Translations under genes and position numbers: made by a program
Part shown: piece by piece, positions 1-8,347 of the stretch
Numbering within the stretch: the first letter of the stretch is position 1
Layout of the letters: every line of letters begins with the position of its first letter
Source of the DNA: Bacteroidota bacterium
GTDB lineage: Bacteria; Bacteroidota; Bacteroidia; Flavobacteriales; Flavobacteriaceae
Direction of reading: 5' to 3'
Assembly: GCA_027621175.1 (NCBI GenBank)
Contig: JAQCCM010000005.1
Coordinates: 1 to 64,000, forward strand
DNA: 64,000 nt
Notes under the pieces: generated by a model
The model's database searches: none
Told to the model about the DNA's origin: nothing
What the model saw: the letters and a program-made list of their open reading frames with translations, nothing else

Positions 1-66
1 AGCTCAGCCGGTTAGAGCGTCGGATTCATAACCCGGAGGTCGGGAGTTCAAGTCTCCCTCTCGCTA
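1..66 (+). tRNA. tRNA-Met (CAT), 5' end outside the window
   Basis: The T arm is clear: a five-pair GGGAG/CTCCC stem (42-46 with 54-58) around the loop TTCAAGT. It is followed by a 3' acceptor strand (59-65) and discriminator A66. The anticodon loop TTCATAA (25-31) gives anticodon CAT. The 5' acceptor strand lies before the window. CCA is not encoded in full. The top anticodon-stem pair A24-C32 is a mismatch. CAT could also belong to a lysidine-modified tRNA-Ile, so the Met assignment is probable rather than certain. Confidence 0.9.
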
Positions 67-6701: not shown

Positions 6702-7592
6702 ATGTTTGAGCTGCTATATGCCAAGCTTTTGGATGAAAAAACCAAAAAGCGAAGCGAACGAATTATCATTAATATTGCCATTGTCAGTTTTGTTCTTCAT
6801 TTGGCAATCATTACGCTAAACGATTTAAAGCTTTTAGGAAGCACTTTTTCGGGTGATTTATTCACCAACCCGATTTCTGCAATTTATACGCCGTTTTCGT
6901 TTATTCTTATCTACGAAGTGTATTTATTGATTTACTATTTACCAAAGTCCATGACCATTTATATTGGCAAACAATACGAGATTATCATGCTTATTGTTAT
7001 CAGGCGCTTATACAAAGACTTATCGAATATTTCATTAAAAGGAGATTGGTTTGAAAGCGCTGAAAACCTTCAATTTATATATGACATAATTGCTACTATT
7101 ATATTGTTTTTACTTATTCATTTGTTTTATAAAATGAACAAATTTCGTGTACGGAAATTGATGAAACTCACCGAAACCAAACCAGAATTAATTCGGTTTG
7201 TAAGGTTCAAAAGAGCTCTTGCAGTCCTATTGGTTCCTGCATTTATCGTGATCGCCCTCTTTAATATATTTGATTGGGCAATTCATGTAACAGAGTTACA
7301 GTCTGGTCTAACAAAAGGGTTGGATATTAATGCCGTTTTCTTCGACGATTTCTTTACGGTGCTTATTTTGGTAGATGTATTATTGGTGCTATTTTCGTTT
7401 GCTCACACAGATAGATTCAACAAGGTAATCCGAAATTCAGGCTTTGTGATTTCTACCATTTTAGTAAAATTATCGTTTAGTGTAACGGGGTTGCAAAACG
7501 TAGTACTGATTATTTCTGCGGTAGCATTTGGTGTAGTAATTTTATGGATTCACAAGCTTTTTGAGCAAAATAAGCTTCCTGCAAATTACTAA
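6702..7592 (+). CDS. Polytopic membrane protein of unknown function
   Basis: A 296-residue integral membrane protein with about six to seven hydrophobic segments, around residues 24-42, 60-80, 95-105, 128-145, 172-192, 213-233 and 250-285. A conserved-looking basic segment (MLIVIRRLYKDLSN) follows the third span, and FVRFKRAL precedes the fifth. It has no signal peptide of the cleavable type. I recognise the general type as a conserved flavobacterial hypothetical but know no function. It converges on the 6S RNA/zapA transcription unit, and its stop lies at the 3' end of that RNA. Confidence 0.75.
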   Translation: MFELLYAKLLDEKTKKRSERIIINIAIVSFVLHLAIITLNDLKLLGSTFSGDLFTNPISAIYTPFSFILIYEVYLLIYYLPKSMTIYIGKQYEIIMLIVIRRLYKDLSNISLKGDWFESAENLQFIYDIIATIILFLLIHLFYKMNKFRVRKLMKLTETKPELIRFVRFKRALAVLLVPAFIVIALFNIFDWAIHVTELQSGLTKGLDINAVFFDDFFTVLILVDVLLVLFSFAHTDRFNKVIRNSGFVISTILVKLSFSVTGLQNVVLIISAVAFGVVILWIHKLFEQNKLPANY

Positions 7593-7760
7593 AAAACCTA
7601 CACCAAGTAAGTTTTGCATAAACTCGAAAAAAAACAGGTTTGAGGCTACCTGAGTGTTCAAGGATCCGCACAAGCGGCTTGCTTTAGCACTCAAAACTCA
7701 CCTCTTCGAATTATATTAGCGTTGAGTTTATCAAAAAATGTACCTGATGTAGGTAGGGCA
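7591..7760 (-). ncRNA. ssrS: 6S RNA (6S-Flavo-like), immediately after zapA
   Basis: The region right after the zapA stop folds, on the minus strand, into a long nested rod. Closing stem: 7746-7753 with 7597-7604 (8 pairs, one G-U). Second stem: 7724-7731 with 7618-7625 (8 perfect pairs). Then come a large internal bubble, an upper stem (7688-7693 with 7651-7656) and a small CCGC/GCGG hairpin near the tip (7674-7677 with 7666-7669). The minus-strand 3' end is TTTTTT (7596-7591). This is the closing stem/central bubble/terminal stem design of 6S RNA, which binds the sigma-70 holoenzyme. Proteobacterial 6S RNA is also a neighbour of zapA. Confidence 0.8.
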
Positions 7761-8045
7761 TTACAAAGGCATTTGTGCCTCTAAATAATTTTTTAAAGAT
7801 AGTACTTTTTTCTGAATTTTAACCTGATTATTTGCTGTGGAATCCTTGTCTTTACTTGCCTGTACGGCAATTTGCAAAGCACACATGGCCAACACATCTT
7901 GTTTGTCTTTGACAGCGTAATTTTTTTCAAAATGCTCTATCATGGCATTTATACTTTTTGCGGCTTCTCTCAAAATCGCCTCCTCTCCCTCAGGAACGCT
8001 CAACGGATATACCCTATCGGCTATAGATAATTTAATTTTTTGCAT
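7761..8045 (-). CDS. zapA: Cell division protein ZapA
   Basis: A 94-residue ZapA, which binds FtsZ at the division ring and promotes bundling of its filaments. The N-terminal part (KIKLSIADRVYPLSVPEGEEAILREAAKSIN) is the characteristic beta/helix region, followed by the long dimerising helix. Length is normal. Its start overlaps the stop of the upstream coiled-coil gene (ATGA), so the two are co-translated. The 6S RNA begins right after its stop codon and may be processed from the same transcript. Confidence 0.92.
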   Translation of the reverse strand: MQKIKLSIADRVYPLSVPEGEEAILREAAKSINAMIEHFEKNYAVKDKQDVLAMCALQIAVQASKDKDSTANNQVKIQKKVLSLKNYLEAQMPL

Positions 8046-8347
8046 CAGTCTTCAATTTCTAGTTGTGCAATACACGCATCCACTTCGTTTATCAAGGCGT
8101 CAATATGATAAAGTGCACGTTTTTTTGATGCCGTATCACTCGTATTTATTCCCTGTGCAGATTTTAGTGCTTCGTATTTTTCCTGCCAGTTTCGCGAAAT
8201 TTCCTGTTTCTTTTCTAACTTACTTGTGGTGTCAATTAACGCTTCTTCAAGCTCTTGGTTTTTCTTTTCAAGTGCACGAAAGCTATCCACCAATACATGT
8301 AATTGATTTTCTAACTGTTCTAAATGCTGCAAGGTGGAATATTCCAT
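8045..8347 (-). CDS. Coiled-coil protein partner of ZapA (ZapB-like)
   Basis: About 100 residues, nearly all coiled coil: heptads run from LQHLEQLENQLHVLV through ALEKKNQELEEAL to KLEKKQEISRNWQEKYEALK. The C-terminus is acidic. This resembles the coiled-coil protein found before zapA in many Bacteroidota and may act like ZapB in the division apparatus; that role is inferred from position and shape. I place the start at the ATG at 8347 (MEYSTLQ), but an ATG five codons upstream (8362) is equally in frame. Confidence 0.75.
   Translation of the reverse strand: MEYSTLQHLEQLENQLHVLVDSFRALEKKNQELEEALIDTTSKLEKKQEISRNWQEKYEALKSAQGINTSDTASKKRALYHIDALINEVDACIAQLEIED

What the first reader, a model, noticed from the sequence alone, without database searches (positions are those of the whole stretch)
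7591..7760. 6S RNA of the Flavobacteria type following zapA directly
The 170 bases after the zapA stop fold into a fully nested rod with four stems and a U-run end (6S design). The zapA neighbourhood also holds 6S RNA in proteobacteria, so position and structure agree across phyla. There is nearly no spacer, suggesting processing from the zapA transcript.
Basis: partly seen in the sequence, partly recalled or inferred. Interest (0 to 1): 0.6.

Follow-up and report, generated by a model that had tools for sequence, protein, structure and literature searches.

The report
6S RNA of Flavobacteria, after zapA
This is the ordinary Flavobacteria-type 6S RNA, a small RNA thought to hold RNA polymerase in check when growth slows; it sits right behind the cell-division gene zapA as in nearly all its relatives, but in this genus the RNA-cutting enzyme gene (RNase Y) that normally follows it has been lost.

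Summary
On the minus strand, just after the zapA stop (7763-7761), about 165-170 nt (7760-7591) fold into a nested rod: 14 bp and 13 bp closing arms, a large central bubble, four inner helices and a U-run end (z -4.7). Rfam 6S-Flavo (RF01685) matches 7727-7620 at 107 bits (cut-off 85), the only copy in the genome. Across 59 relatives, 29 of 47 pairs show changes on both sides, including 10 of 14 in the closing arm outside Rfam's model. All 164 near-complete genomes sampled in the family have it, and zapA lies directly upstream in 155 of 156 loci. It is a new member of a known family; RNA polymerase binding is inferred, not tested.

New side results: the usual order is zapA-6S-rny (RNase Y). 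This genus and about ten others have lost rny. Most rny+ relatives carry a conserved leader (GTTCWTTA...TTACTGCC; 130/146 loci by a loose definition) that is usually gone in rny- lineages (3/31). No primary-sigma promoter box lies there. In this genus a hairpin instead spans the zapA stop.

The parts
7591..7760 (-). 6S-Flavo RNA gene, full rod; RNA body about 7754-7591, exact 5' end not known
   Evidence: RF01685 hit inside; fold z -4.72; covariation over the whole rod in 59 relatives
7620..7727 (-). part covered by Rfam RF01685 (model positions 1-108 of 108)
   Evidence: 107.1 bits, gathering 85
7741..7754 (-). closing helix P1, 5' arm (pairs with 7609-7596)
   Evidence: 10 of 14 pairs with changes on both sides; coordinates
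7596..7609 (-). closing helix P1, 3' arm, runs into the U-run
7591..7596 (-). U-run after P1, intrinsic-terminator-like 3' end; overlaps the last two bases of the stop codon of the convergent gene 6702-7592 (+)
   Evidence: sequence; a run of 5 or more T after P1 located automatically in 148 of 155 relatives
7705..7723 (-). central bubble, 5' strand (presumed template for product RNA; conserved AAC next to helix P2)
   Evidence: function inferred
7626..7641 (-). central bubble, 3' strand (presumed non-template strand)
   Evidence: function inferred
7761..8045 (-). zapA, FtsZ-ring associated protein, 94 aa
   Evidence: PF05164 E 1.4e-19
7755..7787 (-). hairpin across the zapA stop codon, immediately 5' of the 6S rod (own genus); approximate bounds
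   Evidence: lower energy than synonymous recodings, mean z -2.6 over 14 congeners against -0.14 in 141 other loci; for the window copy alone p 0.052

Best explanation
The region encodes the single 6S RNA of this flavobacterium, of the 6S-Flavo type (RF01685). Shown: model match, single copy, full-length rod with covarying arms on both sides of a central bubble, a U-run end, and fixed position behind zapA. Inferred from known 6S RNAs: the rod mimics an open promoter, binds RNA polymerase carrying the primary sigma factor, lowers transcription when nutrients run out, and is released when the polymerase copies a short product RNA from the 5' strand of the bubble (here probably starting at or next to the conserved AAC that abuts helix P2). 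Biogenesis is open: in this genus the most likely route is release from a zapA-6S transcript ending at the U-run, but a promoter inside the zapA tail is not excluded.
For: RF01685 107.1 bits, cut-off 85; one copy in the genome. Fold z -4.72. Structure on 59 aligned relatives: 93.2% of cells paired against 84.0% in shuffles, 29 pairs with changes on both sides against 20.3, covariation score 0.355 against 0.176, and 0.04-0.09 when the partner is slid; RNAalifold finds the same rod unaided, 25 of 39 pairs with compensatory changes. Frequent G-U pairs (for example 53 of 59 at columns 99/181) support the minus strand. Present in 164 of 164 near-complete genomes of the family sampled; zapA upstream in 155 of 156 loci. 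6S RNA was detected in Flavobacterium psychrophilum (PMC9723704), and 6S with product RNAs in Bacteroides thetaiotaomicron (PMC7366714).
Against: No expression or binding data for this organism. The generic 6S model RF00013 does not hit this window at its cut-off or this genome at E 0.001, so the link from 6S-Flavo to 6S rests on structure, shared locus and literature rather than on sequence homology.
Confidence: 0.94

Rival explanations
1. A long transcription terminator or 3' UTR structure of zapA, without a trans-acting role.
For: It starts at the zapA stop and ends in a U-run, and faces a convergent gene.
Against: Terminators do not conserve an unpaired 19/16-nt bubble, invariant loop letters and internal loops across nearly 200 genera; RF01685 score 107 bits.
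Confidence: 0.03
2. On biogenesis only: 6S RNA made from its own promoter located inside the zapA tail, not by processing.
For: E. coli ssrS has its own promoters (general knowledge). The window holds TGCCTTTG just upstream, one letter from the sigma-A -7 box TAnnTTTG.
Against: That box is not kept in the genus: no full TAnnTTTG within 80 nt upstream in any of 14 congeners, and one in 132 rny+ loci, not near the RNA start. An alternative-sigma promoter is not excluded.
Confidence: 0.4
3. On the leader of the relatives: the spacer element GTTCWTTA...TTACTGCC is the promoter of 6S (for a non-standard sigma factor), and its decay in rny-less lineages only reflects genome streamlining.
For: The element is upstream of the RNA at a fairly regular distance (19-24 nt from GTTC to TACTGCC in most loci); rny-less genomes are small.
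Against: Small genomes that kept rny keep both halves in 14 of 25 loci, against 1 of 11 genus representatives without rny (p 0.011, not corrected for relatedness; motif chosen after seeing the data).
Confidence: 0.45

Closest known systems
6S-Flavo RNA, Rfam RF01685 (Weinberg et al. 2010, PMC2864571)
   Same: Model match over all 108 positions, bubble and inner helices, Bacteroidota host
   Different: Full gene is longer than the model (closing arm P1 and outer P2); in this genus the downstream rny and the usual leader are missing
6S / SsrS RNA, Rfam RF00013 (E. coli, B. subtilis)
   Same: Rod with central bubble and closing arm; same place behind zapA in beta- and gamma-proteobacteria (PMC7641849)
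   Different: No RF00013 hit in this window or genome; U-run end directly on the rod
6S RNA of Bacteroides thetaiotaomicron (PMC7366714)
   Same: Same phylum; product RNAs reported there, so the mechanism exists in Bacteroidota
   Different: Sequence not compared here; RF00013-type hits in other Bacteroidota are about 210-240 nt
Ms1 RNA of mycobacteria
   Same: 6S-like rod (from literature abstracts)
   Different: Binds the polymerase core, other phylum, other locus

Membership tests
6S-Flavo RF01685 | Covariance-model score above the curated cut-off, full model length | tested here: met
   107.1 bits against 85, positions 1-108
6S-Flavo RF01685 | Occurs in Bacteroidota, single copy | tested here: met
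   one copy in G000; 164 of 164 near-complete family genomes, none in 14 control genomes
6S RNA (functional class) | Two helical arms around a large central bubble, with compensatory changes in both arms | tested here: met
6S RNA (functional class) | Binds RNA polymerase holoenzyme with the primary sigma factor | not testable with these tools
   needs biochemistry
6S RNA (functional class) | Serves as template for product RNA | not testable with these tools
   reported in B. thetaiotaomicron (PMC7366714), not for this organism
6S RNA (functional class) | Bubble carries a mimic of the host's -7 box | tested here: inconclusive
   [TC]A at the P3/bubble edge in 163 matched loci, TAAACTTG in 61 and TAAACCTG in 40, 5 and 4 of 6 letters of TAnnTTTG; the window's CAAACCTG has only 3 of 6; chance of such a match is not small
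6S / SsrS RF00013 | Model match | tested here: not met
   no hit at gathering score in the window; no hit in G000 at E 0.001
zapA-6S locus | zapA directly upstream, same strand | tested here: met

The most novel reading that the evidence does not exclude
In Bacteroidota the zapA-6S-rny locus is a self-contained biogenesis unit: RNase Y, encoded just downstream, cuts the zapA-6S transcript in the conserved A/U-rich leader (after the G in ...AAGTTACTGCC) to make the 6S 5' end. Lineages that lost rny lost the leader, and the window's genus replaced it by a hairpin over the zapA stop that another nuclease, such as RNase III, could cut.
Probability: 0.2. Interest if true: 0.55.

Novelty: new member of a known kind. 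Interest (0 to 1): 0.27.

Why it matters
As a 6S-Flavo RNA it is expected and ordinary. Its use is that the comparison fixes the full gene boundaries beyond the Rfam model, shows a deep zapA-6S-rny linkage in Bacteroidota beside the published zapA-6S linkage in proteobacteria, and points to a natural test of how 6S 5' ends are made: several lineages lost RNase Y, and their 6S leaders changed.

Tried and rejected
Sigma-70-type promoter scan: nothing useful, 9 hits against 5.4 expected. Search for the GTTCTTTAAAATA element elsewhere in six genomes: not clearly enriched over the backwards control, so not a general promoter. Strict dependence of the leader on RNase Y: rejected, because L232 and L234 (rny-less) keep it and L257/L258 (rny+) lack it. 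Two of the apparently rny-less genomes (G682, G316) turned out to have rny sequence behind the 6S gene, so the first tally overcounts losses; they were moved to rny+. Locus L173 was fetched with wrong coordinates and excluded. The plus strand folds nearly as well (z -4.56), so energy alone does not give the strand; the model and the G-U pairs do.

Full report
What is there. zapA lies on the minus strand at 7761-8045 (Pfam ZapA E 1.4e-19). Directly after its stop, 7760-7591 on the same strand folds into one nested rod, -52.4 kcal/mol, z -4.72 against 200 dinucleotide shuffles. The curated Rfam model for 6S-Flavo matches 7727-7620 from first to last position with 107.1 bits (cut-off 85); the only other Rfam hit in the 64 kb is a tRNA at the window edge. 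It is the only copy in the genome.

Anatomy. P1 is 14 bp (7754-7741 with 7609-7596) and runs into the U-run 7596-7591; P2 is 13 bp (7736-7724 with 7625-7612); the central bubble is 19 nt on the 5' side (7723-7705) and 16 nt on the 3' side (7641-7626); helices of 5, 8, 3 and 4 bp follow to the apical loop. This is the layout of 6S RNA.

Covariation. I aligned 59 loci, mostly one per genus, from the zapA stop to the U-run. The window's own structure scores 93.2% paired cells, 29 of 47 pairs with changes on both sides and a covariation score of 0.355, far above both the shuffles and every slid register. P1, which lies outside the Rfam model, has 10 of 14 pairs with changes on both sides. RNAalifold predicts the same rod without being told. 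Abundant G-U pairs, which would be A-C on the other strand, support the minus strand.

Distribution and place. In the window's family, 194 of 199 sampled genomes and 164 of 164 near-complete ones have the RNA. zapA is directly upstream on the same strand in 155 of 156 loci; the exception sits at a contig end. In other Bacteroidota families the RF01685 model fades, but RF00013 finds 6S RNAs in 24 of 198 genomes of the phylum, only one above its cut-off. The ZapA profile finds zapA ending 22-28 nt before the RNA match in 7 of these 24 loci, confirmed by Pfam for three, with RNase Y confirmed downstream of one. ZapB-ZapA-SsrS order in beta- and gamma-proteobacteria is published (PMC7641849).

Mechanism. 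No data here show polymerase binding. By structure and by experimental work on relatives (6S RNA detected in F. psychrophilum, PMC9723704; 6S and product RNAs in B. thetaiotaomicron, PMC7366714) the RNA most likely imitates an open promoter and sequesters the polymerase. The AACTCAAC stretch (columns 70-77) that would template the start of the product RNA is invariant in the alignment, and so is its partner GAGTT. At the inner edge of the bubble the strand that would act as non-template reads [TC]AAAC[CT]TG in most loci, which resembles the Bacteroidota -7 box TAnnTTTG in 4-5 of 6 letters for the common forms; in the window it is only 3 of 6, so this is a lead, not a test.

How the 5' end is made. 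In most relatives a short spacer separates the zapA stop from the rod, and it is conserved: GTTCWTTA within a few bases of the stop, and TTACT directly before the rod (T 92%; A, C, T 98% in 132 rny+ loci). No sigma-A box sits there: one full TAnnTTTG in the 80 nt upstream of 132 loci, not near the RNA start. In the window's genus (14 loci) both parts are gone and the zapA stop abuts the rod or lies within a few bases of it.

A link with RNase Y. The gene after 6S is rny in 134 of 155 loci. It is missing there in all 14 loci of the window's genus and in seven others, and the genomes tested have no RNase Y elsewhere; their best hits are 36-37-residue HD-domain stretches. In a wider sample 369 of 397 family genomes have rny; at least two of the 28 without a match have it behind 6S on inspection. 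An RpoB tree of 29 genomes needs 5 changes for the loss, with at least 3 forced by well-supported branches. With a loose definition (GTTC[AT]T and ACT[GA]CC), 130 of 146 rny+ loci have both leader parts against 3 of 31 rny- loci; among small genomes 14 of 25 rny+ loci against 1 of 11 rny- genus representatives (Fisher p 0.011; relatedness not corrected, motif defined after looking, small-genome list picked by hand). Within some rny-less genera one species keeps the element and another has lost it, as expected for decay after relaxed selection. RNase Y of Staphylococcus aureus prefers to cut after G in A/U-rich RNA (PMC4608709), which the leader AAAAG|UUACUGCC offers. That this leader is an RNase Y site in flavobacteria is my inference.

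The hairpin in this genus. In the 14 congeners the zapA tail and stop fold into a hairpin whose letters change but whose pairing remains (GGAGGCACAATTGCCTTC in L059, GGAGCGTCAGATGACGCT in L060). Its energy is lower than that of synonymous recodings (mean z -2.6, against -0.14 in 141 other loci); the window's own copy is borderline (p 0.052), and the 14 loci are closely related. RNase III is encoded in all eight congeners tested. A processing role is speculation.

Verdict. The finding is real and correctly named, and it is a new member of a known family in its usual place. The loss of rny and of the leader is the only part that a specialist may find worth following.

Noticed in passing
G000 and congeners; locus downstream of window 7591: The window's genus lacks RNase Y (rny), which directly follows the 6S gene in most Flavobacteriaceae-type genomes; the RpoB tree needs 5 changes (at least 3) for rny loss in the sample.
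   Followed up: yes
L002:1446-1480 and equivalents in about 130 loci: Conserved GTTCWTTA...TTACTGCC leader between the zapA stop and 6S, not a sigma-A promoter; mostly lost in rny-less lineages. A similar AGTTCTTTAAAATA follows zapA in another family of the phylum (L078:1473-1486).
   Followed up: partly
window 7755-7787 (-): Hairpin across the zapA stop codon, kept with compensating changes in 14 congeners.
   Followed up: partly
window 8045-8347 (-): Small gene overlapping the zapA start by one base, no Pfam match, charged and helix-like; it holds the place of zapB in the proteobacterial ZapB-ZapA-SsrS order.
   Followed up: no
window 6702-7592 (+): Convergent 296-aa protein without Pfam match, apparently membrane-bound; its stop codon overlaps the U-run of the 6S gene.
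   Followed up: no
L078, L095 and other RF00013 loci: In other Bacteroidota the order zapA-6S-rny is also seen, with RF00013-type 6S of about 210-240 nt mostly below Rfam's cut-off, so Rfam under-calls 6S in this phylum.
   Followed up: partly
window 1-66 (+): tRNA cut by the window edge.
   Followed up: no
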